A DNA stretch of 64,000 nucleotides from Pyropia yezoensis. Its lineage: Eukaryota; Rhodophyta; Bangiophyceae; Bangiales; Bangiaceae. Positions within the stretch are counted from its first letter, which is position 1; each line of letters opens with the position of its first letter. The notes under the pieces are model-generated. The model had not been told where the DNA came from and did not search any database. It saw nothing but the letters and a program-made list of their open reading frames with translations. The stretch spans positions 22,367,346 to 22,431,345 of the forward strand of contig CM020618.1 of the NCBI GenBank assembly GCA_009829735.1, read 5' to 3'. Position numbers and translations under genes: made by a program. This document shows, in pieces, positions 17,699 to 43,794 of the stretch.

Positions 17699-18166
17699 TG
17701 TGGCAGTATTGACCCCCAGGTAGGGGGCAACACGTGCCATGCAAGGGGCGGCAGGCCACTAGCCTGATCCGTTCCTCCCCCTGCATTTGGGTCCATATTC
17801 CCTAAGTTCGGGATAGTTAGCTTAGTAGTAAATCCAACTTGGATTTGAGGGTTTTCTGCATTTATCGTCTTGAATTTTCGTGTGGCCCGGTGGGCAGGTG
17901 CTGGGGTGGGAGATTCTGAGTGGCGAGATTCTGAGTGGACCCTGGGGGGATAAGGGGAGGGACAGCGGGGCTTGGCCCTGCGTCCCCGTCCCGACCAAGA
18001 AACTGTTGGACCACACACCATCTTCTTGTTTGTCCGTGGGGGGATTGCCCCACAACAGGGATAGAGTGTGTGCGACTTGCACTTCTTCCGGTTCCCCCGA
18101 CACGGGAGGCAGCCCTCGCACACCGCCCCAATTTGGGTACTGTGTGTGCGAATGGTTTTTGCCACA
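17699..18166 (+). repeat. 5' LTR of element 1
   Basis: 468 bp, begins TGTGGCAGTATTGACCCCCA and ends TTTTTGCCACA, giving perfect 7-bp terminal inverted repeats. It contains a direct duplication of GAGATTCTGAGTGG(C). No clear TATA box was found. Confidence 0.95.
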
Positions 18167-18168
18167 TT

Positions 18169-18185: not shown

Positions 18186-18200
18186 ATCAGAGGTAAACTT

Positions 18201-18254: not shown

Positions 18255-18286
18255 CTTGGACCGTGTCATACGGATCGTTAGCCAAC

Positions 18287-20233
18287 ATGGCTAGCTCGGA
18301 CCCCCCGTCGTCCGGGGAGTACACGGGTGACGCACGTACTTCAGTGCCTTTGAATACTGGTGAGACACAGGTGGGTTTACCTGGGGTCGCAGAGGGACTA
18401 GAGGTCCCTCAAGCCAGCAGGACTGGAAGTGCGGGCGGGCAACAGGCCACCCCGACTCAGTCGGGAGTTCACTCGGGTGACACTTCTGACGTGGGTGGGC
18501 CGAAGTCTGGCCACCGTGTGGTATACTCAACGGGAACGTCCCAAGGGGTGAGGACTGTCCCCGCGAGTTCCACTCGGGTTGGAGCCAACTTTGGCATGGA
18601 GCCATCGCCAACTAGGCTTTCGGAGGACGGCGGACCTCCGTTGGTCGGCGATGAGCTCGCGCCCATGCCCCCGGTTGAGACCCCTGAGGAACGTGGTTAC
18701 CCCTCAGGTGGACTCCCGGAGGTGGACCGAGACTCAACTGGAGTCGTCAATCCACTCCTCGCGGAAACTGTCCGTCGGGAGGCGACCACTGTGTTGCGGC
18801 AGACTTTGCCGGACCTGGTGGTCACGATGACGAATACTATTCTGAATCAGATTGTGGCGAGTTTGCCAGATGGCCTTAATGTCCAGACCGGATTGGGGCC
18901 TTCGAGCCCGCAGGCGCAGGGGGTGCCCCCCCTGACACCTATCTCGGGTCGCCCTGAACAGGGGGCGACCCCTGTGACTCCCAACGAGGGAGCCACACCA
19001 TACTCGGTGGGGCGTACGCCCTTCATGGGGGAGTTCCCCCCGACAATACCGGCGGCTACACCAAGCGCGCCGCGCCGGACTACAGGCACTGTGGGTGAAC
19101 TTACCCCAGTGCCACAGCGGCTGTTCCCTCAACGTGAGGTGCCGCCCAAGATCCAGGTAGCCAACCCGGTCTACCAGAGGATCTTTGACTGTGAGACCTA
19201 CGCCCTCCACAACAAGTCGGTGGCGTATGGTCCTGACCAGGCCCGAGCCATGGGCCGTGCCAAGAAGAATGCACTTCATTCTTTTGGGCACAAAGCGGAG
19301 TGGGATGGAACTCCCCCCCTCCGTGTCTTTGAGTTCCTACGTCGTTTCACAAAAGCCTGTGACGACAATGCCATAAGTGAAGGCATGGCTTTTTACATGC
19401 TACAGGAGTTTACGAAGGGAGACCTGCGGACAGAACTTATGTCCGTCATGCCCAGCTCCTCAAGTGGAGGCGCTGGGGAGGTGACGTCCTATTTGGAGCT
19501 CGTCAACTGGTTGTTGAGGGCCATGGTTGATGAAGCGGCGTTGGCTTCTCAAGTCGAGGAGTTTACGCAAGCCCATCAGGAAGAGGCGGAGGACGAGTTG
19601 TCCTTTGCGGAGCGAGTCCGTAAGCTCAACAATCTTTGTGGGTTTCTTCATCCACAAGCTGTGGTGAAGAGTCGGTTTGTGGAAGGACTCCACTGGTCAG
19701 TCCGGATGGAGACCCGGGAGCATAACACTGCCCGGGCGACCCTGGCCGAGTTGGCTAGGTTCGCCTACCGCAGAGGCGAGGCCTACCGCAAGTTGCGGGA
19801 GGAACAACGCCAGGAGCGTCAGGCCGAGTTGGCCAAGGAACGGGAAGAGGCGCGCCAGGCCAGAGAGTTGCGAGAGGCACGCCGAATCCGCAAGGAGAGG
19901 GTGGTAGCTGCCGTGGGAACTTCCCAAGGTACCTCGTCGTCTTCCCCAGTTGGGAAGACCCCTCCGGGAACTGATCATCGGTGTTGGAACTGCAACTCCG
20001 ATGGTCACTGGGCATATGATTGCCCCAAGTTGAGTAAACGCATCCAACAGCTTGTTAGGAATGCGAGTAAGAAGTCGGCTACGAACGAAGTGCGTTCACG
20101 CCGCGAGGGTGGGTCTCGACCAGTGGTGGCGGTCGCCACACCCTCGACGGAGGGGGCGGACACGTCGTCCTCGGACTCGTCGTCGTCCCCTTCGCCCTCA
20201 GATTCGGACGCCAAGTCGGCGGGAAACGAATGA
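18287..20233 (+). CDS. gag: Gag polyprotein of element 1 (648 aa)
   Basis: Structural protein that would form the cytoplasmic particle and bind the genomic RNA. The ATG at 18287 has a strong context (AACATGG); the frame is open a little upstream but only from a non-ATG codon. Residues 1-270 are low-complexity, rich in Gly, Pro, Thr and Ser. Residues about 300-500 are the conserved helical capsid-like part. A charged coiled-coil-like stretch (EEQRQERQAELAKEREEARQ) precedes one CCHC zinc knuckle, C566-x2-C569-x4-H574-x4-C579. The C-terminus is a Ser/Asp-rich tail. The stop overlaps the start of pol as ATGA. Element 2 encodes a nearly identical protein. Confidence 0.93.
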   Translation: MASSDPPSSGEYTGDARTSVPLNTGETQVGLPGVAEGLEVPQASRTGSAGGQQATPTQSGVHSGDTSDVGGPKSGHRVVYSTGTSQGVRTVPASSTRVGANFGMEPSPTRLSEDGGPPLVGDELAPMPPVETPEERGYPSGGLPEVDRDSTGVVNPLLAETVRREATTVLRQTLPDLVVTMTNTILNQIVASLPDGLNVQTGLGPSSPQAQGVPPLTPISGRPEQGATPVTPNEGATPYSVGRTPFMGEFPPTIPAATPSAPRRTTGTVGELTPVPQRLFPQREVPPKIQVANPVYQRIFDCETYALHNKSVAYGPDQARAMGRAKKNALHSFGHKAEWDGTPPLRVFEFLRRFTKACDDNAISEGMAFYMLQEFTKGDLRTELMSVMPSSSSGGAGEVTSYLELVNWLLRAMVDEAALASQVEEFTQAHQEEAEDELSFAERVRKLNNLCGFLHPQAVVKSRFVEGLHWSVRMETREHNTARATLAELARFAYRRGEAYRKLREEQRQERQAELAKEREEARQARELREARRIRKERVVAAVGTSQGTSSSSPVGKTPPGTDHRCWNCNSDGHWAYDCPKLSKRIQQLVRNASKKSATNEVRSRREGGSRPVVAVATPSTEGADTSSSDSSSSPSPSDSDAKSAGNE

Positions 20234-24212: not shown

Positions 24213-24215
24213 GGG
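24201..24215. terminator. Hairpin across the pol stop codon, between convergent genes
   Basis: CCCTCA-ACG-TGAGGG forms a 6-bp stem with the pol TGA inside it, about 100 bp before the end of the antisense ORF. The same hairpin stands at 29924-29938 and in element 2. It might help end transcription or processing from either side. No poly(A) signal was identified, so this is only suggestive. Confidence 0.3.
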
Positions 24216-24301
24216 AAGGCCGAGCAACAGTGCCAAGAGAGTGCTTCAAGTCGAAGTGGTACGCAGAGTGGCTTTAAACTACAGCCCTAACCCTCACACT
24301 C

Positions 24302-24685: not shown

Positions 24686-25185
24686 NNNNNNNNNNNNNNN
24701 NNNNNNNNNNNNNNNNNNNNNNNNNNNNNNNNNNNNNNNNNNNNNNNNNNNNNNNNNNNNNNNNNNNNNNNNNNNNNNNNNNNNNNNNNNNNNNNNNNNN
24801 NNNNNNNNNNNNNNNNNNNNNNNNNNNNNNNNNNNNNNNNNNNNNNNNNNNNNNNNNNNNNNNNNNNNNNNNNNNNNNNNNNNNNNNNNNNNNNNNNNNN
24901 NNNNNNNNNNNNNNNNNNNNNNNNNNNNNNNNNNNNNNNNNNNNNNNNNNNNNNNNNNNNNNNNNNNNNNNNNNNNNNNNNNNNNNNNNNNNNNNNNNNN
25001 NNNNNNNNNNNNNNNNNNNNNNNNNNNNNNNNNNNNNNNNNNNNNNNNNNNNNNNNNNNNNNNNNNNNNNNNNNNNNNNNNNNNNNNNNNNNNNNNNNNN
25101 NNNNNNNNNNNNNNNNNNNNNNNNNNNNNNNNNNNNNNNNNNNNNNNNNNNNNNNNNNNNNNNNNNNNNNNNNNNNNNNNNNNNN
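24686..25185. other. Assembly gap, exactly 500 N
   Basis: A round-number N block inside element 1. The sequence ending at 24685 reappears ending at 30408, and the sequence starting at 25186 reappears starting at 19451. The flanking contigs therefore overlap by about 5.2 kb rather than being separated. Confidence 0.98.
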
Positions 25186-26932: not shown

Positions 26933-29900
26933 ATGGAGGGTGTTCCACCCAGGTTGAGGGTTCAAGTTGAACGCCTCTTGGACCAATATCACAAGTTGTG
27001 GGATGGTCAATTGGGACTCATGAGAGCTACCCAACACCGGATCGAGTTGAAACCCGGTGCGCCCCCTATACGCCAACAACCGTATAGGGGGGACCCCCGT
27101 TCAAGGGCCCTCGTTAAGGAGCAAGTTGCTCGCATGGAGGCCCTCGATGTGATCGAGGCCAGCAACGCCGAGTGGGCGAGTCCGGTGGTGATCGTCCCCA
27201 AAGTTGATGGGACCCCCCGGTTCTGTATCGACTACCGTAAGCTCAACGAGAGCACGGTGAAGGATAGTTATCCCCTACCTCGGATGGATGACTGTCTGGA
27301 CTCTCTGGGGGAGGCAAACGTGTTCTCTACCCTGGACTGTAACGCGGGGTACTGGCAAATTCCCATTGCCCCGGAGGACAGGCATAAAACTACCTTTACC
27401 TGTCACTGTGGTACCTACCAGTGCAAGCGTCTACCGTTTGGCCTGTGTAACGCGCCGGCAACTTTCCAGCGCGCTATGGACATGATTCTGGCCGGAGTAC
27501 GGTGGCAGATCTGTCTCGTGTACCTAGACGATATCATTGTGTTCTCCCGAAGTCCGGAGGAACACATTGGCCATCTTGGCCAGGTGTTCAAGCTACTTGC
27601 TGACGCCGGAGTGTCACTGAAGGCGAGTAAGTGCCACCTCTTCACTCAGGAGGTGGAGTACTTGGGACATGTTGTCCGTCCGGGGCGTCTCAGTGTCAAC
27701 GAGAAAAACTTGAGGGCCATCCGCAAGGCTCAGTACCCCCGGACCCAGACCCAGATGAGGAGCTTCCTCGGGATGTGTAACGTGTACCGACGTTTCACTA
27801 AGGGCTTCGCCAAAGTGGCGAAGCCGTTGAATGAGTTAGTGAGCTCAACGCTACCGAAGAACCTGCCTCCCCCAAGTCGGGTGGAGCAGGAATCCTTTGA
27901 GACTCTTCGGGACCTTCTGCTGAAGCCCCCTATCCTGGCTATTCCCAGGTTGGGAGGCCACTACATCCTGGATGTGGACGCTAGCTATGACCAACTTGGT
28001 TGTGTGTTGCTTCAGCAACAGCCGGACAAGGAGTACTTGCCGGTGGGATACTTCAGCAAGGGGCTAAACTCGGCCGAGAAGAACTACGGAGTCACCGAGT
28101 TGGAAGGACTCGCAGTGGTATGGGCGGTGACGTCACTTCGTCACTACCTAGAGGGTGAGAAGTTCCTCATCCGCTGTGACCACCGCGCGTTGCAGTTCAT
28201 CTTCAAGACGGACTGTACGAACACTCGTCTCAACCGGTGGAGGGTGCGACTTGCACCCTTCAACTTTGATATTGAGTACCGACCTGGCAGGCAACATGCC
28301 CTTGCCGACGGCCTCTCTCGGGTACCTACCGAGGGACTGGACACCACCCCAGTCGATGAGGACATCCCCATCGTGGGGGTAGTCACGCGCTCGGGTCAGG
28401 CGTTGAATCCCGAGGCGCCAGGGAACAAGAAGTACTTGCCCCTGTCCCTGGACGAAGTAGTGAAGGCCCAGGCCGAGGATCCCTTCTGCAAGTCGCAGAG
28501 GGATACCCTGGATACAGTGGCGGAGACGCGGTTCTTCCTGGGAGACGATGGCCTCCTCATGAGGAGGGGGGTATTCCAGGGGACCGAACAACTTGTCGTC
28601 CCCGCATCCCTCAAGGACAGTATCCTTGAGAGGGAGCATAACGCTCCCACGGGTGGACACCTGGGGTCTAGTAAACTGTACCAGACCCTGAGGACCAGGT
28701 ACTACTGGCCGTCCATGGTGGTGGACATCTATAGTTGGGTGGCTGCCTGCACAAGTTGTGCACAGAACCGTCTGATGGAACGGCGGCCTAGTACGGCTAT
28801 GCTATTGTTCCCGGCCAAGGAGCCCTTCGCCGCGTTGGCGATGGACATCCTTGGGCCACTGCCAGTGACCGAGGAGGGCAACCAGTACCTCCTGGTCATC
28901 TGTGACCGCTTCACGAAACTTACGCGAGCGATCCCACTGGCAGAGATCACGGCCATGTCGGTCGTGTCAGCCTTCCTAGATCACTGGGTTGCCGCGTATG
29001 GCATTCCGGATAGTACACTATCGGACAATGGACCGCAATTTGCGTCTGTACTGTTTCAAGGAGTGCTGGATATGTTGGGGGTTAAGGCAAACTATGCCAC
29101 CCCCTACCACCCACAAACTAATGGGCAGGTGGAGCGCTTCAACAAAACTATTGTTAGGCAGCTGCGCCATTATGTGAGTGAGCACGTGAAGACGTGGGAC
29201 CAATACATTTCTATTCTGACCACTGCCTACAATTCGCAGGTTCACTCATCTACCGGGGAAGTACCCCTCGCTTTTGTGACCCCCCGTCGCGTGCGGTCTA
29301 TTGCCGTGCGGCGGCCGCTCCCAACTAGGGAGGATGGTGGCAGTACGCCCACTCCTACTGAGAGTAAGGCGGAGTTCGCTGCTAGGCTTGAAAACCTCAT
29401 CCCTAAAGTCAGGGCTGAGATGGACAAAGCACAAAAGCGCTACAAGCGTACCTTTGACAAAAAGGTGCGCAACGCCAAGCATGTCCCCGAGCAGGGTGAC
29501 TGGGTATTGGTCCACTCACACACCCCAACTGGGGGTAAGTTGGTGTTCCAGACGAAGGGGCCGTACCAGGTCCTTCGTACTGATGGGCGGTGCTTCACCA
29601 TCGAAAGTGACGATGGGGTCCGCACAGTGAACGGACAGGACGTGGTCAAAGTTGCACCACCGCCTGCAGGCGACCCAGCTTGGGCGCGTGCTTTGAAAAC
29701 GTGGCGCCTGCCCTCGCTGCCTGCAGCCAAACAGGGCCCGCAGGAGTACGTGTTCGACAAGTTCATCGACCACGGCTGGGATGAGGATACTGACCGCCTC
29801 ATGTTGAGGGTGCGTTGGTTTGGCTACAAAGCCAAGGATGATACGTGGGAGTATGTGGAGGACCTTCCTGCTGAGAAGGTCCGGGCGTACTGTGCCCGGA

Positions 29901-29935
29901 ACGAGATAGACCCTAACAGCCCTCCCTCAACGTGA
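26933..29935 (+). CDS. pol: Pol of element 1, right-hand assembly copy (open from before RT to chromodomain)
   Basis: The same sequence as 21212-24212 with the full-length C run at 29101-29105, giving an uninterrupted 1,000-codon frame through reverse transcriptase, RNase H, integrase and chromodomain. The start shown is only where the frame becomes readable after the error-rich stretch; the natural start is the ATGA overlap. It differs from the left copy at YRGDPR versus YRGGPR (a G/C run of the same total length), another run-length call. It documents that element 1 probably has an intact pol. Confidence 0.85.
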   Translation: MEGVPPRLRVQVERLLDQYHKLWDGQLGLMRATQHRIELKPGAPPIRQQPYRGDPRSRALVKEQVARMEALDVIEASNAEWASPVVIVPKVDGTPRFCIDYRKLNESTVKDSYPLPRMDDCLDSLGEANVFSTLDCNAGYWQIPIAPEDRHKTTFTCHCGTYQCKRLPFGLCNAPATFQRAMDMILAGVRWQICLVYLDDIIVFSRSPEEHIGHLGQVFKLLADAGVSLKASKCHLFTQEVEYLGHVVRPGRLSVNEKNLRAIRKAQYPRTQTQMRSFLGMCNVYRRFTKGFAKVAKPLNELVSSTLPKNLPPPSRVEQESFETLRDLLLKPPILAIPRLGGHYILDVDASYDQLGCVLLQQQPDKEYLPVGYFSKGLNSAEKNYGVTELEGLAVVWAVTSLRHYLEGEKFLIRCDHRALQFIFKTDCTNTRLNRWRVRLAPFNFDIEYRPGRQHALADGLSRVPTEGLDTTPVDEDIPIVGVVTRSGQALNPEAPGNKKYLPLSLDEVVKAQAEDPFCKSQRDTLDTVAETRFFLGDDGLLMRRGVFQGTEQLVVPASLKDSILEREHNAPTGGHLGSSKLYQTLRTRYYWPSMVVDIYSWVAACTSCAQNRLMERRPSTAMLLFPAKEPFAALAMDILGPLPVTEEGNQYLLVICDRFTKLTRAIPLAEITAMSVVSAFLDHWVAAYGIPDSTLSDNGPQFASVLFQGVLDMLGVKANYATPYHPQTNGQVERFNKTIVRQLRHYVSEHVKTWDQYISILTTAYNSQVHSSTGEVPLAFVTPRRVRSIAVRRPLPTREDGGSTPTPTESKAEFAARLENLIPKVRAEMDKAQKRYKRTFDKKVRNAKHVPEQGDWVLVHSHTPTGGKLVFQTKGPYQVLRTDGRCFTIESDDGVRTVNGQDVVKVAPPPAGDPAWARALKTWRLPSLPAAKQGPQEYVFDKFIDHGWDEDTDRLMLRVRWFGYKAKDDTWEYVEDLPAEKVRAYCARNEIDPNSPPST

Positions 29936-30046
29936 GGGAAGGCCGAGCAACAGTGCCAAGAGAGTGCTTCAAGTCGAAGTGGTACGCAGAGTGGCTTTAA
30001 ACTACAGCCCTAACCCTCACACTCTCACAACAAAGGCAGCTGCCAA

Positions 30047-31990
30047 CTAGGCACGCATGCTAGACTCTCCCACTCCACGGCCCTCGCCCTCACGTGGAGG
30101 CGAGCGGCGAGACCCACGCCGATAACGGTCTCCACTCGTTGGAAGGGGCGGCGGCTCCAAGTCGGAACCGTCGCGCCCCTCACGGTCGCGCAAGTGGCGC
30201 CGACCGTGGCTACTCTTCTGCCTGGTCTTGCGCGCAAGTTTGCGACGCAGACGCTGGACAGACTCCGTCTCCGATGGGGTAGAGGACTCCGAGACGGAGT
30301 AAGACAACTCGTCTTCCGACACGGAGGGAGAGCGCCGCGAGTGACGGCGACGACGGCGAGGAGGCGAGTATGCCCGGCTCGCACGACGCTTGCCACGCCC
30401 AAGTGGGGTTGGCTGGGGCATAATAGCCCCAATGCGAGCCAACTCGGCCGTCATAAACTCCGCCACCGACTCGCAACTCGCGGTCGCCACTGCAGTACGA
30501 ACGCGCTCCTCAAGTTGAGGAGTCTCGGAACTTTGGAGGGTTGCGGTCGACGCGGCCAACCAGGAAATGGTGCGCACCAACGTGGTGATCATCATCTCTG
30601 AGGTTAGAGGCGTGGGCGGTAACACCAACTTGGGGTATACCGTCAGGAGGGTGGCCCCCAAGTTGGGAGACACCGGTGTGGATGACTCCACGGCCACGCT
30701 GATCGGGATGTTCCCGTGAGGCTGGAAAGGAACAGGAGGAAGCGGAGGGGCACGCCGAGGTGGCGGTACCCGGGTGTAACTGCGACCCCGACTTGGGGCC
30801 CCCGCAGTAGGTTGAGTCATATGGTCATCATATGAGGGCACAGCCATAACTATGGGCTTGTCCGGGGGTGGCGCAGTGTGACGATCCACCCCCGGGGCAT
30901 ACGGGTAGTCCCCGATGCCCAACCCCTCTCGTAGGACCACACGGCCGTCGTGAAGTTCACGAGCGACCCACACGAACTGGCGAAGTGCGCCATCGTCCTT
31001 GGGCCCCCGAGTGGGGCGGCGCAACTTGTGCTCAATGCTCTCCCACTCGATAAACTTGTGGAGGCGGAGCATCTCCTCAAGTAGAGTGAGTTGTCCTGAT
31101 GAGCACCCCTCAGCAACTAGCTGAGGGGTGAGCTGTTCCAGACCTTGGATGAGCCGGAGGGGGAGATGCCAGAGCATCCCCCGCCGCTGAACACATGACA
31201 CCCAGGTCGACATGACCTCGAGGAGCCACTGGGTGGCCAACATGGCCCACACCAGATGATCAGGGCCAGCCGTCAACATGACGGAGCCGAAGTGGTCAAG
31301 CAACCGTGGCAACAATGCCGGGAACCCGTAGGGGACCTCAACTTGAGGCCACCACTCGGGCTTCTTCGGGTAGTATTGCTCCTTACTGGCAGCAGACTGC
31401 TGAGGAAACTCAAGTTGAGCCGAGGTCACCAAGTAGGGACCTCGCCGGAAGTCCTTCTCCATCCGCACATCAAAGTGATGAGTGTGCGGATCGGCCTCGT
31501 GAAGGTACGGGGGGCGAGTTGCCACCGCGTCCCAAGTGAAGGTCGGCAAGTCGCCGGGACCCGGGATAGTTCCCCCGCGGTCCACCATGGCCTTGGCCCG
31601 CTGCACGTCCTCGACCTCCTCGTCGTCCAGGAAGGCAAACTGGTCCGTCCTGAAGCCGGCAGGGAACCCGACCCTACGGGGATACTTCTCCCGTAGGCGG
31701 TCCCATACCCGACCCATCGCTGCGCCGAGTCGGCCACAGCGAAGAACAGTCAACCCCTCCTCATACAGAGGCCAAGCGGGGTAAAACCACCGCCCCAAGG
31801 CCTCACGCGGGACAACTTGTCCCGCCTCCGGGGGAGATCCTGCCGTCAACCCAAAGCCGGGTGACGCGGGAGTCCCACCCCCCGGAGCGATCGCGGAGCC
31901 CCCGCCGGAAGTCCCGGCAGGCGCTGCACCGTAGGAGGTGTCCTCCATACGCTCATCGAGAGAGTCCGTCTCCACTCCCGGAGTCGCCAT
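30047..31990 (-). CDS. Antisense ORF between pol and 3' LTR (647 aa), unknown function
   Basis: No family recognised. It reads opposite to gag-pol and converges on pol, with 111 bp between the two stop codons. The first ATG (31990) has a good context (GCCATGG); the frame stays open to 32161 without an ATG. The N-terminal ~100 residues are acidic then Pro/Gly-rich. The centre (about 70-400) is globular in composition, rich in Trp, Tyr, Phe and Leu (RWFYPAWPLYEEGLTVLRCG is one landmark). The last ~130 residues are Arg/Ser-rich and basic, with RRRRRHSRRSPSVSEDELS and RRKLARKTRQK, as in RNA-binding or nuclear proteins. Competing frames here reach at most about 146 codons. Its promoter would have to lie in or next to the 3' LTR. 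Element 2 keeps the whole frame except one nonsense codon. Confidence 0.75.
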   Translation of the reverse strand: MATPGVETDSLDERMEDTSYGAAPAGTSGGGSAIAPGGGTPASPGFGLTAGSPPEAGQVVPREALGRWFYPAWPLYEEGLTVLRCGRLGAAMGRVWDRLREKYPRRVGFPAGFRTDQFAFLDDEEVEDVQRAKAMVDRGGTIPGPGDLPTFTWDAVATRPPYLHEADPHTHHFDVRMEKDFRRGPYLVTSAQLEFPQQSAASKEQYYPKKPEWWPQVEVPYGFPALLPRLLDHFGSVMLTAGPDHLVWAMLATQWLLEVMSTWVSCVQRRGMLWHLPLRLIQGLEQLTPQLVAEGCSSGQLTLLEEMLRLHKFIEWESIEHKLRRPTRGPKDDGALRQFVWVARELHDGRVVLREGLGIGDYPYAPGVDRHTAPPPDKPIVMAVPSYDDHMTQPTAGAPSRGRSYTRVPPPRRAPPLPPVPFQPHGNIPISVAVESSTPVSPNLGATLLTVYPKLVLPPTPLTSEMMITTLVRTISWLAASTATLQSSETPQLEERVRTAVATASCESVAEFMTAELARIGAIMPQPTPLGRGKRRASRAYSPPRRRRRHSRRSPSVSEDELSYSVSESSTPSETESVQRLRRKLARKTRQKSSHGRRHLRDREGRDGSDLEPPPLPTSGDRYRRGSRRSPPREGEGRGVGESSMRA

Positions 31991-32319
31991 GGCTCTCCCC
32001 AAGTTGGGGAGAGACGTCCTGGCTATCGCGGCACGAGACCCGCCTCGAGTTGAGGGGGACTCGGATCGTGGGTAAACGGGTGGCCTCCCCAGCGTGGGGT
32101 GGCCCCGTGTAAGGTGAAGGAGAAGTGGTGGTGGTGGTGAGGTGTGAACCGAGGAGAGCAAGCTGCCAAGTGGGCAAGCTTGAGGAGAGGGGCGGCCAAC
32201 GTGACCGCCTCCACATCCGCGTTACGTACTCAAGGGGGGACAGCAAGTCGCGTCCCCCCCCAACGCCGAGACGTGCGTTTACGCACCCCCTCACAGGGCC
32301 GACCGGGTCGGTCGGAACT

Positions 32320-32332
32320 GAGGAGAGGGGAG
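32320..32332 (+). other. Polypurine tract of element 1
   Basis: GAGGAGAGGGGAG abuts the 3' LTR, as expected for the plus-strand primer of reverse transcription. The same tract precedes the 3' LTR of element 2 (43085-43097). Confidence 0.88.
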
Positions 32333-32800
32333 TGTGGCAGTATTGACCCCCAGGTAGGGGGCAACACGTGCCATGCAAGGGGCGGCAGGCCACTAGCCTG
32401 ATCCGTTCCTCCCCCTGCATTTGGGTCCATATTCCCTAAGTTCGGGATAGTTAGCTTAGTAGTAAATCCAACTTGGATTTGAGGGTTTTCTGCATTTATC
32501 GTCTTGAATTTTCGTGTGGCCCGGTGGGCAGGTGCTGGGGTGGGAGATTCTGAGTGGCGAGATTCTGAGTGGACCCTGGGGGGATAAGGGGAGGGACAGC
32601 GGGGCTTGGCCCTGCGTCCCCGTCCCGACCAAGAAACTGTTGGACCACACACCATCTTCTTGTTTGTCCGTGGGGGGATTGCCCCACAACAGGGATAGAG
32701 TGTGTGCGACTTGCACTTCTTCCGGTTCCCCCGACACGGGAGGCAGCCCTCGCACACCGCCCCAACTTGGGTACTGTGTGTGCGAGTGGTTTTTGCCACA
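32333..32800 (+). repeat. 3' LTR of element 1
   Basis: 468 bp, differing from the 5' LTR at only two positions that I can see, both near the right end (AACTTGG for AATTTGG and GCGAGTGG for GCGAATGG). It is followed directly by GGAGG. Confidence 0.95.
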
Positions 32801-34158: not shown

Positions 34159-34627
34159 TGTGGCAGTATTGACCCCCAGATAGGGGGGCAACACGTGCCA
34201 TGCAAGGGGCGGCAGGCCACTAGCCTGATCCGTTCCTCCCCCTACATTTGGGTCCATATTCCCTAAGTTTGGGATAGTTAGCTTAGTAGTAAATCCAACT
34301 TGGATTTGAGGGTTTTCTGCATTTATCGTCTTGAATTTTCGTGTGGCCCGGTGGGCAGGTGCTGGGGTGGGAGATTCTGAGTGGCGAGATTCTGAGTGGA
34401 CCCTGGGGGGATAAGGGGAGGGACAGCGGGGCTTGGCCCTGCGTCCCCGTCCCGACCAAGAAACTGTTGGACCACACACCATCCTCTTGTTTGTCCGTGG
34501 GGGGTTTGCCCCACAACAGGGACAGAGTGTGTGCGACTTGCACTTCTTCCGGTTCCCCCGACACGGGAGGCAGCCCTAGCACACCGCCCCAATTTGGGTG
34601 CCGTGTGTGCTTGTGGTTTTTGCCACA
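34159..34627 (+). repeat. 5' LTR of element 2
   Basis: 469 bp with the same TGTGGCA/TGCCACA ends as element 1. It has AGATAGGGGGGC where element 1 has AGGTAGGGGGC near the start. Confidence 0.95.
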
Positions 34628-34629
34628 TT

Positions 34630-34646
34630 TGGTGGAGCAGCAGGGG
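34630..34646 (+). other. Primer-binding site of element 2
   Basis: The same 17 bases as in element 1, TGGTGGAGCAGCAGGGG, two bases after the LTR. Confidence 0.75.
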
Positions 34647-34746
34647 ACAGAGCTAAACTTTACCTCCGGGTGTACCCGGGTGTAGGGGGCCCTCTGTCTC
34701 AGAGGAACGGTGGACTTGGACCGTGTCATACGGATCGTCAGCCAAC

Positions 34747-36693
34747 ATGGCTAGCTCGGACCCCCCGTCGTCCGGGGAGTACACGGGTGACGCACGTACT
34801 TCAGTGCCTTTGAATACTGGTGAGACACAGGTGGGTTTACCTGGGGTCGCAGAGGGACTAGAGGTCCCTCAAGCCAGCAGGACTGGAAGTACGGGCGGGC
34901 AACAGGCCACCCCGACTCAGTCGGGAGTTCACTCGGGTGACACTTCTGATGTGGGTGGGCCGAAGTCTGGCCACCGTGTGGTATACTCAACGGGAACATC
35001 CCAAGGGGTGAGGACTGTCCCCGCGGGTTCCACTCGGGTTGGAGCCAACTTTGGCTTGGAGCCGTCGCCAACTAGGCTTTCGGAGGACGGTGGACCTCCG
35101 TTGGTCGGCGATGGGCTCGCGCCCATGCCCCCGGTTGAGACTGCTGAGGAACGTGGTTACCCCTCAGGTGGACTCCCGGAGGCGGACCGAGACTTCACTG
35201 GAGTCGTCAAGCCACTCCTCGCGGAAACTGTCCGTCGGGAGGCGACCAATGTGTTGCGGCAGACTTTGCCGGACCTGGTGGTCACGATGACGAATACTAT
35301 TCTGAATCAGATTGTGGCGAGTTTGCCAGATGGCCTCAATGTCCAGACCGGATTGGGGCTTTCGAGCCCGCAGGCGCAGGGGGAATCCCCCCTGACGCCT
35401 ACCTCGGGTCGCCCCGAACTGGGGGCGACACCTGTGACTCCCAACGAGGGGGCCCCACCATACGCGGTGGGGCGTACGCCCTTCATGGGGGAGTTCCCCC
35501 CGGAAACGCCGGCGGCTACACCAAGCGCGCCGCGCCGGACTACAGGCACTGAGAGTGAACTTACCCCAGTGCCACAGCGGCTGTTCCCTCAACGTGAGGT
35601 GCCGCCCAAGATCCAGGTAGCCAACCCGGTCTACCAGAGGATCTTTGACTGTGAGACCTACGCCCTCCACAACAAGTCGGTGGCGTATGGTCCTGACCAG
35701 GCCCGAGCCATGGGCCGTGCCAAGAAGAATGCACTTCATTCTTTTGGGCACAAAGCGGAGTGGGATGGAACTCCCCCCCTCCGTGTCTTTGAGTTCCTAC
35801 GTCGTTTCACAAAAGCCTGTGACGACAATGCCATAAGTGAAGGCATGGCTTTTTACATGCTACAGGAGTTTACGAAGGGAGACCTGCGGACAGAACTTAT
35901 GTCCGTCATGCCCAGCTCCTCAAGTGGAGGCGCTGGGGAGGTGACGTCCTATTTGGAGCTCGTCAACTGGTTGTTGAGAGCCATGGTTGATGAGGCAGCG
36001 TTGGCTTCTCAAGTCGAGGAGTTTACGCAAGCCCACCAGGAAGAGGCCGAGGACGAGTTGTCCTTTGCGGAGCGAGTCCGTAAGCTCAACAATCTTTGTG
36101 GGTTTCTTCATCCACAAGCTGTGGTGAAGAGTCGGTTTGTGGAGGGACTCCATTGGTCAGTCCGGATGGAGACCCGGGAGCATAACACTACCCGGGCGAC
36201 CCTGGCCGAGTTGGCCAGGTTCGCCTATCGCAGAGGCGAGGCGTACCGCAAGTTGCGGGAGGAACAACGCCAGGAGCGTCAGGCCGAATTGGCCAAGGAA
36301 CGGGAGGAGGCGCGCCAGGCCAGAGAGTTGCGAGAGGCACGCCGAATCCGCAAGGAGAGGGTGGTAGCTGCCGTGGGAACTTCCCAGGGTATCCCTTCGT
36401 CTTCCCCAGTTGGGAAGACCCCTCCCGGACCGGCCCATCGGTGTTGGAACTGCAACTCCGATGGTCACTGGGCATATGATTGCCCCAAGTTGAGTAAACG
36501 CATCCAACAACTTGTTAGGAATGCGAGTAAAAAGTCGGCTACGAACGAAGTACGTTCACGCCGCGAGGGTGGGTCTCGACCGGTCGTTGCGGTCGCCACA
36601 CCCTCGGCGGAGGAGGCGGACACGTCGTCCTCGGACTCGTCGTCTTCCTCCCCGCCCTCAGATTCGGACGCCAAGTCGGCGGGAAACGAATGA
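34747..36693 (+). CDS. gag: Gag polyprotein of element 2 (648 aa, open)
   Basis: Same length and architecture as the gag of element 1: a Gly/Pro/Thr-rich N-terminal third, the capsid-like middle, a charged coiled-coil-like segment, one CCHC knuckle (CWNCNSDGHWAYDC) and a Ser/Asp-rich tail. The ATG at 34747 has the same AACATGG context, and the stop overlaps the pol ATG as ATGA (36690-36693). Differences from element 1 are scattered single residues, mostly in the low-complexity N-terminal part. It is the only gene of element 2 without a disabling change. Confidence 0.92.
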   Translation: MASSDPPSSGEYTGDARTSVPLNTGETQVGLPGVAEGLEVPQASRTGSTGGQQATPTQSGVHSGDTSDVGGPKSGHRVVYSTGTSQGVRTVPAGSTRVGANFGLEPSPTRLSEDGGPPLVGDGLAPMPPVETAEERGYPSGGLPEADRDFTGVVKPLLAETVRREATNVLRQTLPDLVVTMTNTILNQIVASLPDGLNVQTGLGLSSPQAQGESPLTPTSGRPELGATPVTPNEGAPPYAVGRTPFMGEFPPETPAATPSAPRRTTGTESELTPVPQRLFPQREVPPKIQVANPVYQRIFDCETYALHNKSVAYGPDQARAMGRAKKNALHSFGHKAEWDGTPPLRVFEFLRRFTKACDDNAISEGMAFYMLQEFTKGDLRTELMSVMPSSSSGGAGEVTSYLELVNWLLRAMVDEAALASQVEEFTQAHQEEAEDELSFAERVRKLNNLCGFLHPQAVVKSRFVEGLHWSVRMETREHNTTRATLAELARFAYRRGEAYRKLREEQRQERQAELAKEREEARQARELREARRIRKERVVAAVGTSQGIPSSSPVGKTPPGPAHRCWNCNSDGHWAYDCPKLSKRIQQLVRNASKKSATNEVRSRREGGSRPVVAVATPSAEEADTSSSDSSSSSPPSDSDAKSAGNE

Positions 36694-39600
36694 CCGTTGG
36701 GGCTGGTCGTCCGAAGCTCACAACGGCAGCCTCGGCCAAGTGGGCCAGGAGGACGAACCAACCGTGCCGGATACTGCGGCGATCTAAGGGAGTCCGCCCA
36801 CCTCGGGTAGGACTCCCCAAGAACGTAAACCCACGTCGTGTCATCGCGGTGCTGACGGGTGAGAACCTCCAGGTGGCTGGACGGGTGCAACTTGCCCCCG
36901 GCCGTGCCACCTGTGCCCGTATCGTACTTGATACCGGGTCAGGAGCCTCCTTGATACGCAAGTCGCTATTACCAAAGGAGGTGAAGCTCCAACGCTGGAG
37001 GTCCAAAGCTGACCATATGATTGACATCAATGGTGGGGTACTTCCCATCGTTGGTGCCGTGACCCTACCAACTAGGTTGGGGACCCATGAGGTCGACGTG
37101 ACCTATGGTGTAGTTGAGAATATATCGGTACCCCTGCTTCTGGGTACCCCTTATGTCGTAACACAAGTGCCTTTGATCTGTGGCCCCGAGTACTGGGTCA
37201 AGTTGATGAATGGGGAGACTATCCCCATCCTTGGTAAGGGAAAGTCTGTGGCTCCTGTGACAGTTTCACAGTCGAAGCCTGTTTGCTCTGTGAGGGAAGG
37301 GTTTACTGCTACCCTGCGTTTAGCCCGCAAAGTCACGTTGCCCCCCAACTCGGTGGCGCACGTTGACGTTGTAACTGATTTTTCGGGGAACGGGTTGGTG
37401 CACCCTCACCCCCGTCTTGCTCGCAAGCACCAAGTGCATGTTGCCCTTGGCACGATGGACTCCAAAGCCGGAGTCCCGTGGAGGATACAGGTGATGAACC
37501 TGAGCCCGACGCCCAAGTACTTCAAGTCGGGAGCCAAGTTCGGCTATATCGACCAACATGAGGGACCGGTAGTAGCGGTCACCCTCAACGCGGGCGCAAG
37601 TAGCGACCCGAAGTCCGGAAAGGAGAAGCATCAAGCCAAGTCGGCCACCTCTCCTCGGCCCCATGTGAACATGGAGGGTGTTCCACCCAGGTTGAGGGTT
37701 CAAGTTGAACGCCTCTTGGACCAATATCACAAGTTGTGGGATGGTCAATTGGGACTCATGCGAGCCACCCAACACCGGATCGAGTTGAAGCCCGGTGCAC
37801 CCCCTATACGCCAACAACCGTATAGGGGATGACCCCGTTCAAGGGCCCTCGTTAAGGAGCAAGTTGCTCGCATGGAGGCCCTCGATGTGATCGAGGCCAG
37901 CAACGCCGAGTGGGCGAGTCCGGTGGTTATAGTCCCCAAAGTTGATGGGACCCCCCGGTTTTGTATCGACTACCGTAAGCTCAACGAGAGCACGGTGAAG
38001 GACAGTTATCCCCTACCTAGGATGGATGACTGTCTGGACTCTCTGGGGGAGGCGAACGTGTTCTCTACCCTGGACTGTAACGCGGGGTACTGGCAAATTC
38101 CCATTGCCCCGGAGGACAGGCATAAAACTACCTTTACCTGTCACTGTGGTACCTACCAGTGCAAGCGCCTACCGTTTGGTCTGTGCAATGCGCCGGCAAC
38201 TTTCCAGCGCGCTATGGACATGATTCTGGCCGGAGTACGGTGGCAGATCTGTCTTGTGTACCTAGACGACATCATTGTGTTCTCCCGAAGTCCGGAGGAA
38301 CACATTGGCCATCTTGGCCAGGTGTTCAAGCTACTTGCTGACGCCGGTGTGTCACTGAAGGCGAGTAAGTGCCACCTCTTCACTCAAGAGGTGGAGTACT
38401 TGGGACATGTTGTCCGTCCGGGGCGTCTCAGTGTTAACGAGAAGAACTTGAGGGCCATACGTAAGGCTCAGTACCCCCGGACCCAGACCCAGATGAGGAG
38501 CTTCCTCGGGATGTGTAACGTGTACCGACGTTTCACCAAGGGCTTCGCCAAGGTGGCGAAGCCGTTGAATGAGCTAGTGAGCTCAACGCTACCGAAGAAC
38601 CTGCCTCCCCCAAGTCGGGTGGAGCAGGAAACCTGCCTCCCCCAAGTCGGGTGGAGCAGGAATCCTTTGAGACTCTTCGGGACCTTCTGCTGAAGCCCCC
38701 CATCTTGGCTATTCCCAGGTTGGGAGGCCACTACATCCTGGATGTGGACGCTAGCTACGACCAACTTGGTTGTGTGTTGCTTCAGCAGCAGCCGGACAAG
38801 GAGTACTTGCCGGTGGGATACTTCAGTAAGGGGCTGAACTCGGCCGAGAAGAACTACGGAGTCACCGAGTTGGAAGGACTCGCAGTGGTATGGGCGGTGA
38901 CGTCACTTCGTCACTACCTAGAGGGTGAGAAGTTCCTCATCCGCTGTGACCACCGCGCGTTGCAGTTTATCTTCAAGACGGACTGTACGAACACTCGTCT
39001 CAACCGGTGGAGGGTGCGACTGGCACCCTTCAACTTTGACATTGAGTACCGACCTGGCAGGCAACATGCCCTTACCGATGGCCTCTCTCGGGTACCCACC
39101 GAGGGGCTGGACACCAACTCAGTCGATGAGGACATCCCCGTCGTAGGGGTAGTCACGCGCTCGGGTCAGGCGTTGAACCCCGAGGCGCCAGGGAACAAGA
39201 AGTACTTGCCCCTGTCCCTGGACGAGGTAGTGAAGGCCCAGGCCGAGGATCCCTTCTGCAAGTCGCAGAGGGATACACTGGATACAGTGGCGGAGACGCG
39301 CTTCTTTCACGGAGACGATGGCCTCCTCATGAGGAGGGGGGTATTCCAGGGGACCGAACAACTTGTCGTCCCCGCATCCCTCAAGGGCAGTATCTTTGAG
39401 AGGGAGCACAACGCTCCCACGGGTGGACACCTGGGGTCTAGTAAACTGTACCAGACCCTGAGGACCAGGTACTACTGGCCGTCCATGGTGGTGGACATCT
39501 ATAGTTGGGTGGCTGCCTGCACAAGTTGTGCACAGAACCGTCTGATGGAACGGCGGCCTAGTACGGCTATGCTATTGTTCCCGGCCAAGGAGCCCTTCGC

Positions 39601-40704
39601 CGCGTTGGCGATGGACATCCTTGGGCCACTGCCAGTGACCGAGGAGGGCAACCAGTACCTCCTGGTCATCTGTGACCGCTTCACGAAACTTACGCGAGCG
39701 ATCCCACTGGCAGAGATCACGGCCATGTCGGTCGTGTCAGCCTTCCTAGATCACTGGGTTGCCGCGTATGGCATCCCAGATAGTACACTATCGGACAATG
39801 GACCGCAATTTGCGTCTGTACTGTTTCAGGGAGTGCTGGATATGTTGGGGGTTAAGGCAAACTATGCCACCCCCTACCACCCACAAACTAATGGGCAGGT
39901 GGAGCGCTTCATCAAACTATTGTTACGCAGCTGCGCCACTATGTGAGTGAGCACGTGAAGACGTGGGACCAATACATTTCTATCCTTACTACTGCCTACA
40001 ATTCGCAGGTTCACTCATCTACAGGGGAAGTACCCCTCGCTTTTGTGACCCCCCGTCGTGTGCGGTCTATTGCCGTGCGGCGGTCGCTCCCAGCTGGGGA
40101 GGGTAGTGGCAGTACGCCTACTCCTACTGAGAGTAAGGCGGAGTTCGCTGCTAGGCTGGAGCACTTCATCCCTAAAGTCAGGGCTGAGATGGACAAAGCA
40201 CAAAAGCGCTACAAGCGTACCTTTGACAAAAAGGTGCGCAATGCTAAGCATGTCCCCGAGCAGGGTGACTGGGTGCTGGTACACTCGCACACCCCAACTG
40301 GGGGTAAGCTGGTATTCCAGACGAAGGGACCGTACCAGGTCCTTCGTACTGATGGGCGGCGCTTCACCATCGAAAGTGACGACGGGGTCCGCACAGTGAA
40401 CGGACAGGACGTGGTCAAAGTTGCACCACCGCCTGCAGGCGACCCAGCTTGGGCGCGTGCGTTGGAAGCGTGGCGCCTCCCCTCACTGCCTGCGGCGAAA
40501 CAGGGCCCGCAGGAGTACGTGTTCGATAAGTTCATCGACCACGGATGGGATGAGGACACTAACCGTCTCATGTTGAGGGTGCGTTGGTTCGGCTACAAAG
40601 CCAAGGATGATACGTGGGAGTATGTGGAGGATTTTCCCGCTGAGAAGGTCCGGGCGTACTGTGCCCGGAATGAGATAGACCCTAAGAGCCCTCCCTCAAC
40701 GTGA
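36690..40704 (+). pseudogene. pol: Pol of element 2, inactivated by three lesions
   Basis: Starts in the ATGA overlap, with an intact protease (DTGSGAS). Lesion 1 is a TGA at 37830-37832, between protease and reverse transcriptase, where element 1 has a glycine or aspartate codon. Lesion 2 is a 32-bp tandem duplication (38599-38630 repeated at 38631-38662) in the stretch linking reverse transcriptase and RNase H, which shifts the frame. Lesion 3 is a net one-base loss near 39912-39916, just after the integrase glutamate. The remaining text (YLDD, RNase H residues, HHCC, DD35E, chromodomain) is conserved. It cannot give a complete Pol by itself. Confidence 0.92.
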
Positions 40705-40815
40705 GGGAAGGCCGAGCAACAGTGCCAAGAGAGTGCTTCAAGTCGAAGTGGTACGCAGAGTGGCTTTTAACTACAGCCCTAACCCTCACACTCTCACAAC
40801 AAAGGCAGCTGCCAA

Positions 40816-42759
40816 CTAGGCACGCATGCTAGACTCTCCCACTCCACGGCCCTCGCCCTCACGTGGAGGCGAGCGGCGAGACCCACGCCGATAACGGTCT
40901 CCACTCGTTGGAAGGGGCGGCGGCTCCAAGTCGGAACTGTCGCGCCCTTCACGGTCGCGCAAGTGGCGACGACCGCGGCTACTCCTCTGCCTGGTCTTGC
41001 GCGCAAGTTTGCGACGCAGACGCTGGACAGACTCCGTCTCCGACGGGGTAGAGGGCTCCGAGACGGAGTAAGACAACTCGCCTTCCGACACGGAGGGAGA
41101 GCGCCGCGAGTGTCGGTGACGACGGCGAGGAGGCGAGTATGCCCGGCTCGCGCGACGTTTGCCACGCCCAAGTGGGGCTGGCTGGGGCATGATAGCCCCA
41201 ATGCGAGCCAACTCGGCTGTCATAAACTCCGCCACCGACTCGCAACTCGCGGTCGCCACTGCATTACGAACGCGCTTCTCAAGTTGAGGAGTCTCGGAAC
41301 TCTGGAGGGTTGCGGTCGACGCGGCCAACCAGGAAATGGTACGCACCAACGTGGTGATCATCATCTCTGAGGTCAGAGGCGTGGGCGGTAACACCAACTT
41401 GGGGTATACCGTCAGGAGGGTGGCCCCCAAGTTGGGGGACACCGGGGTGGATGACTCCACGGCCACGCTGATCGGGATGTTCCCGTGAGGTTGGAAAGGA
41501 ACAGGAGGAAGCGGAGGGGCCCGCCGAGGTGGCGGTACCCGGGTGTAACTGCGACCCCGACTTGGGGCCCCCGCAGTGGGTTGAGTCATATGGTCATCAT
41601 AGGACGGTACGGCCATAACTATGGGCTTGTCCGGGGGTGGCGCAGTGTGGCGATCCACCCCCGGGGCATACGGGTAGTCCCCGATGCCCAACCCCTCTCG
41701 TAGGACCACACGGCCGTCGTGAAGTTCACGAGCGACCCACACGAACTGGCGAAGTGCGCCATCGTCCTTGGGCCCACGAGTGGGGCGGCGCAACTTGTGC
41801 TCAATGCTCTCCTACTCGATGAACTTGTGGAGGCGGAGCATCTCCTCAAGTAGAGTGAGTTGTCCTGATGAGCACCCCTCAGCAACTAGCTGAGGGGTGA
41901 GCTGTTCCAGACCTTGGATGAGCCGGAGGGGGAGATGCCAGAGCATCCCCCGCCGCTGAACACAGGATACCCAGGTCGACATGACCTCCAGGAGCCACTG
42001 GGTGGCCAACATGGCCCACACCAGGTGATCAGGGGCAGCCGTCAACATGACGGAGCCGAAGTGGTCAAGCAACCGTGGCAACAACGCCGGGAACCCGTAG
42101 GGGACCTCAACTTGAGGCCACCACTCGGGCTTCTTCGGATAGTACTGCTCCTTACTGGCAGCAGACTGTTGAGGAAACTCAAGTTGAGCCGAGGTCACCA
42201 AGTAGGGACCTCGCCGGAAGTCTTTCTCCATCCGCACATCAAAGTGATGAGTGTGCGGATCGGCCTCGTGGAGGTACGGTGGGCGAGTTGCCACCGCGTC
42301 CCAAGTAAAGGTCGGCAAGTCGCCGGGACCCGGGATAGTTCCCCCGCGGTCCACCATGGCCTTGGCACGCTGGACGTCTTCAACCTCCTCGTCGTCCAGG
42401 AAGGCAAACTGGTCCGTCATGAAGCCGGCAGGGAACCCGACCCTACGAGGATACTTCTCCCGTAGGCGGTCCCATACCCGGCCCATCGCTGCGCCAAGTC
42501 GGCCGCAGCGAAGAACAGTCAACCCCTCCTCATAGAGAGGCCAAGCGGGGTAAAACCACCGCCCCAAGGCCTCACGCGGGACAACTTGTCCCGCCTCCGG
42601 GGGAGATCTCGCCGTCAACCCAACGCCGGGTGACGCGGGAGTCCCATCCCCCGGAGCGATCGCGGAGCCCCCGCCGGAAGTCCCGGCGGGTGCTGCACCG
42701 TAAGAGGTGTCCTCCATGCGCTCGTCAAGAGAGTCCGTCTCCACTCCCGGAGTCGCCAT
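40816..42759 (-). pseudogene. Antisense ORF of element 2, one nonsense codon
   Basis: Same position, direction, ATG context and length as the antisense gene of element 1. The frame is open except for TAG at 41812-41814, a single-base change of the Trp codon (TGG) that element 1 has in its KFIEWES segment. That gives two open parts, 315 codons from the ATG and about 325 after the stop. About twenty residues differ from element 1 over the whole length, many in the Pro-rich N-terminus and the Arg/Ser-rich tail. In a short sample of the tail I counted three replacement and two silent changes, which does not show selection. Confidence 0.75.
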
Positions 42760-43084
42760 GGCTCTCCCCAAGTTGGGGAGAGACGCTCTGGCTATCGCGG
42801 CACGAGACCCGCCTCGAGTTGAGGGGGACTCGGATCGTGGGTATACGGGTGGCCTCCCCAGCGTGGGGCGGCCCAGTGGAAGGTGAAGGGGAGGTGGTGG
42901 TGATGGTGAAGTGTGAACTGAGGAGAGCAAGCTGCCGAGTGGGAAAGCTTGGGGAGAGGGGCGGTCAACGTGACCGCCTCCACATCCGCGTTACGTACTC
43001 GATGGGGGACAGCAAGTCGCGCCCCCAACGCCGAGACGTGCGTTTACGCACCCCCTCACAGGGCCGACCGGGTCGGTCGGAACT

Positions 43085-43097
43085 GAGGAGAGGGGAG
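43085..43097 (+). other. Polypurine tract of element 2
   Basis: GAGGAGAGGGGAG directly before the 3' LTR, identical to that of element 1. Confidence 0.88.
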
Positions 43098-43566
43098 TGT
43101 GGCAGTATTGACCCCCAGATAGGGGGGCAACACGTGCCATGCAAGGGGCGGCAGGCCACTAGCCTGATCCGTTCCTCCCCCTGCATTTGGGTCCATATTC
43201 CCTAAGTTTGGGATAGTTAGCTTAGTAGTAAATCCAACCTGGATTTGAGGGTTTTCTGCATTTATCGTCTTGAATTTTCGTGTGGCCCGGTGGGCAGGTG
43301 CTGGGGTGGGAGATTCTGAGTGGCGAGATTCTGAGTGGACCCTGGGGGGATAAGGGGAGAGACAGCGGGGCTTGGCCCTGCGTCCCCGTCCCGACCAAGA
43401 AACTGTTGGACCACACACCATCCTCTTGTTTGTCCGTGGGGGGTTTGCCCCACAACAGGGACAGAGTGTGTGCGACTTGCACTTCTTCCGGTTCCCCCGA
43501 CACGGGAGGCAGCCCTTGCACACCGCCCCAACTTGGGTGCCGTGTGTGCATGTGGTTTTTGCCACA
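43098..43566 (+). repeat. 3' LTR of element 2
   Basis: 469 bp, ending TTTTTGCCACA. Differences from the 5' LTR include CCTGCATTT for CCTACATTT, AACCTGG for AACTTGG, GGAGAGACAG for GGAGGGACAG and GTGCATGTGG for GTGCTTGTGG. Confidence 0.95.
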
Positions 43567-43794
43567 GCGAAGTGCGCCATCGTCCTTGGGCCCACGAGTG
43601 GGGCGGCGCAACTTGTGCTCAATGCTCTCCTACTCGATGAACTTGTGGAGGCGGAGCATCTCCTCAAGTAGAGTGAGTTGTCCTGATGAGCACCCCTCAG
43701 CAACTAGCTGAGGGGTGAGCTGTTCCAAACCTTGGATAAGCCGGAGGGGGCGATGCCAGAGCATCCCCCGCCGCTGGACACAGGACACCCAGGT
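43567..43794 (-). pseudogene. Orphan fragment of the antisense ORF
   Basis: Corresponds to 41754-41982 inside element 2. The first ~150 bp are identical to it, including the TAG nonsense codon, while the last ~80 bp differ at five places (for example CCAAACCTTGGATAAG for CCAGACCTTGGATGAG). It runs straight from the 3' LTR into the satellite. It could be the tail of another inserted copy, a product of recombination between copies with partial conversion, or an assembly join. Confidence 0.85.

What the first reader, a model, noticed from the sequence alone, without database searches (positions are those of the whole stretch)
30047..31990. A conserved antisense gene inside a chromodomain retrotransposon
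Both nearly complete elements carry, between pol and the 3' LTR, a ~650-codon frame on the opposite strand, with an ATG in good context, a globular-looking centre rich in aromatic residues and an Arg/Ser-rich basic tail. I recognise no family. Extra ORFs, some antisense, are known between pol and the 3' LTR of plant Tat-lineage Ty3/gypsy elements, and HTLV-1 makes HBZ from its antisense strand. A large, SR-tailed antisense product in a chromovirus of this kind of genome would be new to me. It implies a minus-strand promoter at the 3' LTR and convergent transcription with gag-pol, with possible roles in RNA export, packaging, silencing or self-limitation.
Basis: partly seen in the sequence, partly recalled or inferred. 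Interest (0 to 1): 0.88.

Follow-up and report, generated by a model that had tools for sequence, protein, structure and literature searches.

The report
Antisense gene in nori seaweed retrotransposon
A jumping element present in many copies in what appears to be the genome of the seaweed nori carries, on the strand opposite to its replication genes, a real protein-coding gene of unknown family that selection keeps intact; such backwards genes are known in a few plant and fungal elements, but this one matches no known protein family and sits in a red alga.

Summary
Window 31990..30047 (minus) is an intact 647-codon frame between pol and the 3' LTR of a Ty3/gypsy element with a weakly scoring C-terminal chromodomain. 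The frame is coding: between the two window copies 51 of 66 differences fall at third codon positions, and dN/dS from the ATG is 0.088; pol gives 0.08, gag 0.27. A copy 74% identical in protein, open over about 600 codons, gives 0.25 at dS 0.59. Genome searches returned many open copies, but list only the best-scoring. No Pfam or PDB relative was found; the one protein-database hit is a near-identical copy. Antisense genes at this position are described in flowering plants and a fungus, so this is a new variant of a known kind. The likeliest role, a nuclear nucleic-acid-binding accessory regulator, is inferred; transcription could not be tested. The element also carries unexplained palindromes with an AASTT core (17 found in E2, 0.2 expected).

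The parts
30047..31990 (-). antisense gene (asORF), ATG to stop, 647 aa, intact in element E1
   Evidence: dN/dS 0.088 against E2, 0.25 against L069
30911..31450 (-). most constrained part of the product (codons 181-360)
   Evidence: 80-85% protein identity to L069, dN/dS 0.10-0.16 in three 60-codon windows
30551..30730 (-). second constrained block (codons 421-480)
   Evidence: 83% identity, dN/dS 0.14
30050..30400 (-). basic Arg/Ser-rich tail (codons 531-647)
   Evidence: net charge +18, 5 RS/SR dipeptides
31991..32332 (-). presumed 5' leader between the 3' LTR and the ATG; one upstream ATG, out of frame, at -226
   Evidence: the 57 in-frame codons next to the ATG have dN/dS 0.77 from 11 differences
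40816..42759 (-). asORF copy of element E2, one in-frame stop at 41812-41814
43567..43794 (-). 228-bp asORF fragment (E3) directly after E2's 3' LTR, with the same stop as E2
18263..20233 (+). gag frame of E1 (CCHC zinc knuckle)
26933..29935 (+). pol frame of E1 as assembled right of the gap (RT, RNase H, integrase, weak C-terminal chromodomain)
17699..18166 (+). 5' LTR of E1; TSD GGAGG at 17694-17698
32333..32800 (+). 3' LTR of E1; TSD GGAGG at 32801-32805
24686..25185 (.). 500-N scaffold gap between two overlapping assembled halves of E1
34159..43566 (+). element E2, LTR to LTR; its pol is split over several frames
31993..32013 (.). 21-bp AASTT-core palindrome just upstream of the asORF start codon

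Best explanation
Shown: the element family carries an antisense protein-coding gene between pol and the 3' LTR, kept by purifying selection that between the two window copies is about as strong as on pol, and already present before the family split into subfamilies about 0.6 synonymous substitutions per site apart. Inferred: translation starts at the ATG at 31990; expression comes from a minus-strand promoter in the leader or the 3' LTR; the product goes to the nucleus, where its aromatic-rich centre and basic Arg/Ser tail bind the element's own DNA or RNA, and it acts as an accessory regulator that favours the element (escape from silencing, RNA export or integration). It would be the functional analogue, not a shown homologue, of plant Grande/Retand antisense proteins and of retroviral accessory proteins.
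For: Third-position bias 6/9/51. dN/dS 0.088 from the ATG and 0.77 in the 57 codons upstream (the upstream value rests on 11 differences); for codons 1-600, 0.083 with bootstrap 0.04-0.15. Pol 0.08 and gag 0.27 on the same copy pair. L069 is 74% identical, open over about 600 codons, with the same start Met and dN/dS 0.25 (bootstrap 0.20-0.32). Two decayed copies compared with each other give 0.74 (0.54-1.06), as expected after loss of constraint. Codon usage correlates with gag-pol best in this frame (0.81 against 0.26-0.67). 30 of 30 loci cut out have pol on one side and the LTR on the other. The one database relative begins at the same Met. No transmembrane-like stretch (highest 19-residue hydropathy 1.23). 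The nuclear role rests on the basic tail and on analogy: Grande's antisense protein is reported nuclear (review).
Against: No transcript or protein evidence was available. E2 and E3 share a stop in the frame, so a lineage with a truncated product may have spread. Over longer time the asORF is less constrained than pol: in copy L064 asORF 0.29, pol tail 0.15. RS content is modest. The copies listed by the genome searches are the best-scoring ones, not a random sample.
Confidence: 0.55

Rival explanations
1. The frame is a by-product of GC-rich sequence or of codon structure on the other strand and codes for nothing.
For: Antisense frames are often open in GC-rich DNA (general knowledge); the LTR and its flank also hold a 252-codon antisense frame.
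Against: No long plus-strand frame lies there; third-position bias p = 3e-13; dN/dS 0.088; open over about 600 codons in a 74% identical copy; 1000 shuffles reach 415 codons at most.
Confidence: 0.02
2. The antisense transcript, not the protein, matters: convergent transcription makes double-stranded RNA that limits the element or serves the host's silencing.
For: Proposed for antisense aORFs in the review; only 111 bp lie between the pol stop and the asORF stop, so transcripts would probably overlap (sequence, inference).
Against: Does not explain codon-level selection about as strong as in pol. It could act besides the protein.
Confidence: 0.08
3. A host gene captured in antisense orientation, whose product does a cellular job rather than an element-regulating one.
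For: Capture is known for LTR elements, though usually in sense orientation (review and survey).
Against: No relative in Pfam or PDB and one near-identical database hit. 30 of 30 cut-out loci lie in the element. But the genome searches were saturated by element copies, so a diverged host relative could be missed.
Confidence: 0.15
4. A structural or assembly factor (second capsid-like or nucleocapsid-like protein) used in particle formation rather than in the nucleus.
For: A basic tail would also suit a virion protein; length is close to gag (647 and 656 aa).
Against: Profile comparison with gag gives probability 1.5%. A structural protein needed in quantity on a separate antisense transcript would be unusual (inference).
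Confidence: 0.15

Closest known systems
Antisense additional ORFs (aORF-3R) of plant Ty3/gypsy Grande, RIRE2 and Retand (TRP28 / PF04195 in Retand)
   Same: Antisense, between pol and 3' LTR, repeated over many copies, unknown function; nuclear localisation reported for Grande
   Different: Retand is a non-chromovirus lineage of flowering plants; no PF04195 match in the asORF or in this genome. Direct sequence comparison with Grande or RIRE2 proteins was not done
brtn of Boty-like elements in Botrytis cinerea
   Same: An additional antisense gene of a gypsy element outside plants (title in a reference list; review)
   Different: Fungus; the brtn sequence was not compared here, so relatedness is untested
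PvRetro13 ORF2 (Phaseolus)
   Same: Antisense aORF between pol and 3' LTR
   Different: Said to carry an SMC domain; the asORF has no Pfam match
HBZ of HTLV-1
   Same: Antisense gene with a nuclear product
   Different: bZIP protein (recalled); no Pfam match of any kind here
VANC anti-silencing proteins of Arabidopsis VANDAL transposons
   Same: Element-encoded regulator that binds a short motif enriched in its own family (passages)
   Different: Not an LTR retrotransposon (recalled); VANC motifs sit in tandem repeats of non-coding DNA, the palindromes here also in coding sequence; binding of the asORF product to them is untested

Membership tests
aORF-3R (antisense ORF between pol and 3' LTR) | Position and orientation | tested here: met
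   (30 of 30 loci cut out)
aORF-3R | Repeated over many copies of the family with coding conservation | tested here: met
   113 of 138 scored copies have no stop in the match and an open frame of 715 aa or more (hand tally); 63 of 72 stop-free over up to 605 codons; best-scoring copies only, so the share of all copies is unknown. dN/dS
aORF-3R | Own antisense transcript | not testable with these tools
Retand TRP28 proteins | Transposase_28 domain (PF04195) | tested here: not met
   no Pfam family at E up to 1; 0 matches in the genome at E up to 1 (no control genome passed the cut-off, so that search lacks a positive control)
[quoted passage not shown]
   PF00385 E = 6.5e-4 at residues 942-986, 20.0 bits, below the cut-off of 25.1; not listed for the 99% identical P0011, listed for relatives P0016, P0017. 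Probably present but marginal
Chromovirus sensu stricto | RT/RNase H/integrase phylogeny inside the chromovirus clade | not tested
   no named reference set; chromodomain elements outside chromoviruses exist (passage)
Classical SR protein | RNA-recognition motif plus RS domain | tested here: not met
   no RRM or other Pfam match; 5 RS/SR dipeptides in the 117-residue tail
HBZ-like antisense protein | bZIP domain (feature recalled) | tested here: not met
   no Pfam match at E up to 1
Env-like aORF | Sense orientation and transmembrane segments | tested here: not met
   antisense; highest 19-residue hydropathy 1.23

The most novel reading that the evidence does not exclude
The antisense gene encodes a self-recognition factor: its product binds the family-specific AASTT-core palindromes spread over the element (as DNA sites or RNA/cDNA stem-loops) and so marks the element's own copies or transcripts for escape from silencing, export or packaging. 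It would be a red-algal retrotransposon counterpart of VANC/VANDAL or of Rev and its response element.
Probability: 0.15. Interest if true: 0.88.

Novelty: new variant of a known kind. Interest (0 to 1): 0.6.

Why it matters
Antisense accessory genes in LTR retrotransposons are described in flowering plants and a fungus, with functions still unknown. A young red-algal family with many open copies, decayed relatives at several distances and a constrained protein makes it possible to ask directly what such genes do. If the palindromes are its targets, protein and sites could be studied together. It also warns annotators of this genome that the repeated frame belongs to an element and not to a host gene family.

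Tried and rejected
Close relatives of the asORF in viral contigs: none; pol relatives there: none. asORF in genome contigs: none. Pol in genome contigs: 2 loci, in contigs filed under bacterial MAGs; in L001 no antisense frame after pol exceeds 133 aa, and L002 ends inside pol. Two protein searches with the asORF found one near-identical protein (the first scored only the 8000 candidates sharing most words), although pol relatives at 55-67% identity are in that database; either their antisense genes are too diverged for the word search or they lack them. Gag homology: rejected. PF04195: rejected. LTR antisense frame 32230-32988: the comparison is uninformative because it ran outside the LTR; dropped. 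In one search three rows (L035, L038, L039) were aligned in the wrong orientation and are discarded; one search repeats them correctly (dN/dS 0.22, 0.27, 0.30). L063 and L065, fetched as expected 3' parts of diverged copies, gave no asORF match. A recalled lead, an extra ORF in the Chlamydomonas element REM1, was looked for in papers (4 listed, none opened) and not pursued. Literature searches (listings) showed no title or abstract start that I recognised as a red-algal or chromodomain element with an antisense gene; that is not proof of absence, and most subscription papers are not held.

Full report
Where this is. The window is G000:C1:22367346-22431345 in an assembly of 107,475,971 bases in 11 contigs. 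Its three long contigs are 43.59, 34.33 and 29.39 Mb. The P. yezoensis genome paper gives scaffolds of 43.6, 34.3 and 29.4 Mbp, 48% repeats and 71% GC in coding regions (PMC7423979, abstract and passages). I take the host to be Pyropia (Neopyropia) yezoensis; the assembly itself is unnamed.

The elements. E1 (17699-32800) has LTRs with 2 mismatches in 468 aligned sites and a 5-bp target duplication GGAGG. Its apparent length of 15.1 kb comes from a 500-N gap (24686-25185) flanked by 99.66% identical overlapping sequence, so it is most likely one element about as long as E2. E2 (34159-43566, 9.4 kb) has LTRs with 6 mismatches in 469. E1 lies inside an older relative, E0 (about 75-77% identical, pieces at 15632-17693 and 32801-34157). 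Gag has a CCHC knuckle. Pol carries RT, RNase H, integrase and a chromodomain that scores below Pfam's cut-off. An intact 1327-aa pol, 99% identical over the searched part, exists in another public contig.

The antisense frame. It runs from ATG 31990 to the stop at 30047 (647 aa), open back to 32221. Shuffled sequence reached 415 codons at most in 1000 trials. E1 and E2 differ at 66 of 1944 sites, at codon positions 6/9/51 (p = 3e-13). Nei-Gojobori dN/dS is 0.088 from the ATG; the other five frames give 0.18 (one plus frame) to 3.6, and the 57 codons upstream in the same frame give 0.77 from 11 differences. So constraint appears to begin near the ATG. For the same pair, pol gives 0.08 (998 codons) and gag 0.27 (648 codons). 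E2 has one in-frame stop (41812-41814), and a 228-bp fragment after its 3' LTR has the same stop; E2's pol is also split over frames, so it is a decaying copy.

Copies elsewhere in the genome. A protein search scored 63 of 13,335 candidates; 63 of 63 have a 724-codon frame without stops in the match. A second query scored 138 of 3,383 candidates: 7 of 138 have a stop inside the match, and by my hand count 113 of 138 have none and a frame of 715 aa or more. A third scored 72 of 2,392: 63 of 72 are stop-free over up to 605 codons. These lists hold best-scoring copies and overlap, so they show many open copies, not the share that is open. In 30 of 30 cut-out loci the frame lies between pol and the LTR. 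The 30 loci, E1's own included, hold 20 distinct coding sequences with 0 to 9 differences from E1; they were picked by protein score, so no selection test was made on them.

Older subfamilies. Four decayed copies (L064, L066, L067, L068) and one with an open frame (L069) were read. E1 against L069: 74% protein identity, 600 codons without stops, dS 0.59, dN 0.15, ratio 0.254 (bootstrap 0.20-0.32); the start Met is conserved and L069's frame departs from E1's near the C-terminus. Codons 181-360 and 421-480 are the most constrained. Between decayed copies the ratio rises to 0.57-0.76, for example 0.74 for L064-L066 (0.54-1.06). Against the decayed copy L064 the pol tail gives 0.151 (169 codons) and the asORF 0.29, so over longer times the asORF evolves somewhat faster than pol.

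What the protein is. No Pfam family at E up to 1 and no PDB chain at E up to 10, alone or as a profile. No resemblance to the element's gag. One relative, P0005 (97% identical, same start Met, 576 aa), was found among about 5.8 billion proteins, with a word-based search of limited reach. Composition suggests an acidic start, an aromatic-rich centre and a basic Arg/Ser tail.

Mechanism. Shown: coding, constraint, position, age relative to subfamilies. Inferred: use of that ATG, expression from a minus-strand promoter, nuclear entry through the basic tail, nucleic-acid binding, regulation in favour of the element. Only 111 bp lie between the pol stop and the asORF stop, so convergent transcripts may overlap and double-stranded RNA may be an additional effect.

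Known relatives in kind. A review and a survey (PMC7264820 parts 1-2 of 3; PMC11963269 abstract, background, part 1 of 2 of the structure section, discussion) describe antisense ORFs between pol and the 3' LTR in Grande, RIRE2, Retand, PvRetro13 and the fungal Boty. Grande's protein is reported nuclear and transcribed from its own promoter (cited there). 97% of the Retand clusters surveyed encode TRP28 (PF04195), which this protein and this genome lack in my searches. The Boty gene brtn is known to me here only from the review and a reference entry. Passages of three more papers on chromodomain elements and additional ORFs were seen (PMC2864245, PMC12477816, PMC5408684). Hence: known kind of arrangement, a protein unrelated where tested, a new host lineage as far as my searches go.

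An unexplained companion. While reading the region I saw many odd palindromes with centre AASTT. E2 has 17 with arms of 5 or more (0.20 expected by shuffling); of the five commonest core halves listed, AA has 17, the others 2, 1, 1, 1. For E2's 21 CAASTTG sites, 70 of 105 arm positions pair, against 30.1 when right arms are permuted among sites, and 0 of 20,000 permutations reach 70. The arms differ from site to site, and centres are split 10 C to 11 G. They occur in subfamily loci L034, L035, L038, L069 and, with other arms, in E0 (3, 0.07 expected); they are absent from the four other stretches checked (46-62 kb, 8.7-15.6 kb, L063, L065) and from the distant element L001, and L002 has 1 (0.20 expected). 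One 19-bp palindrome inside the asORF is in E1 and E2 but in 0 of 5 older copies. Genome-wide CCTCAASTTGAGG occurs 2113 times against 1 for the reversed pattern; many of the first places listed are pairs about 828 bp apart, the spacing of two such sites in E1's asORF, so this count probably reflects element copies. Pairing without a fixed arm sequence points to a stem-loop; the lack of strand preference points to DNA or to both RNA strands. Whether the antisense protein binds them is untested. The comparison with VANC proteins and their motifs rests on passages of PMC5735166.

Verdict. It is a new variant of a known kind, well supported as coding, with function inferred.

Noticed in passing
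34158-43566 and 17699-32800 (e.g. 31993-32013, centres 31816 and 32472): Dispersed odd palindromes with AASTT core and site-specific but self-complementary arms, far above chance and seen in this element family and its relative E0. Meaning unknown.
   Followed up: partly
24686-25185: 500-N scaffold gap that makes one element look like a 15 kb duplicated one; overlapping contig ends were apparently not merged.
   Followed up: partly
1-8608 and 43687-44605: Tandem array of a 346-bp satellite (25 copies listed) and about 2.3 further units right after the retrotransposon block.
   Followed up: no
43567-43794: Fragment of the antisense gene directly abutting E2's 3' LTR, sharing E2's stop, which suggests recombination between copies; E2 shows no clear target duplication.
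   Followed up: partly
45901-49755 +: Very GC-rich single-frame host gene with a voltage-gated chloride channel (CLC) domain and long low-complexity N-terminus.
   Followed up: no
15632-17693 and 32801-34157: Older, about 75-77% identical relative (E0) interrupted by E1 and abutting E2; of 40 genome matches to its pol piece the top one was itself and the other 39 were 74-76% identical.
   Followed up: partly
L001 (WTKN01000225.1), L002 (JALZUP010000409.1): Ty3/gypsy pol related to this element's, in contigs filed under bacterial MAGs (Moorena, Robiginitomaculum), probably eukaryotic contamination.
   Followed up: no
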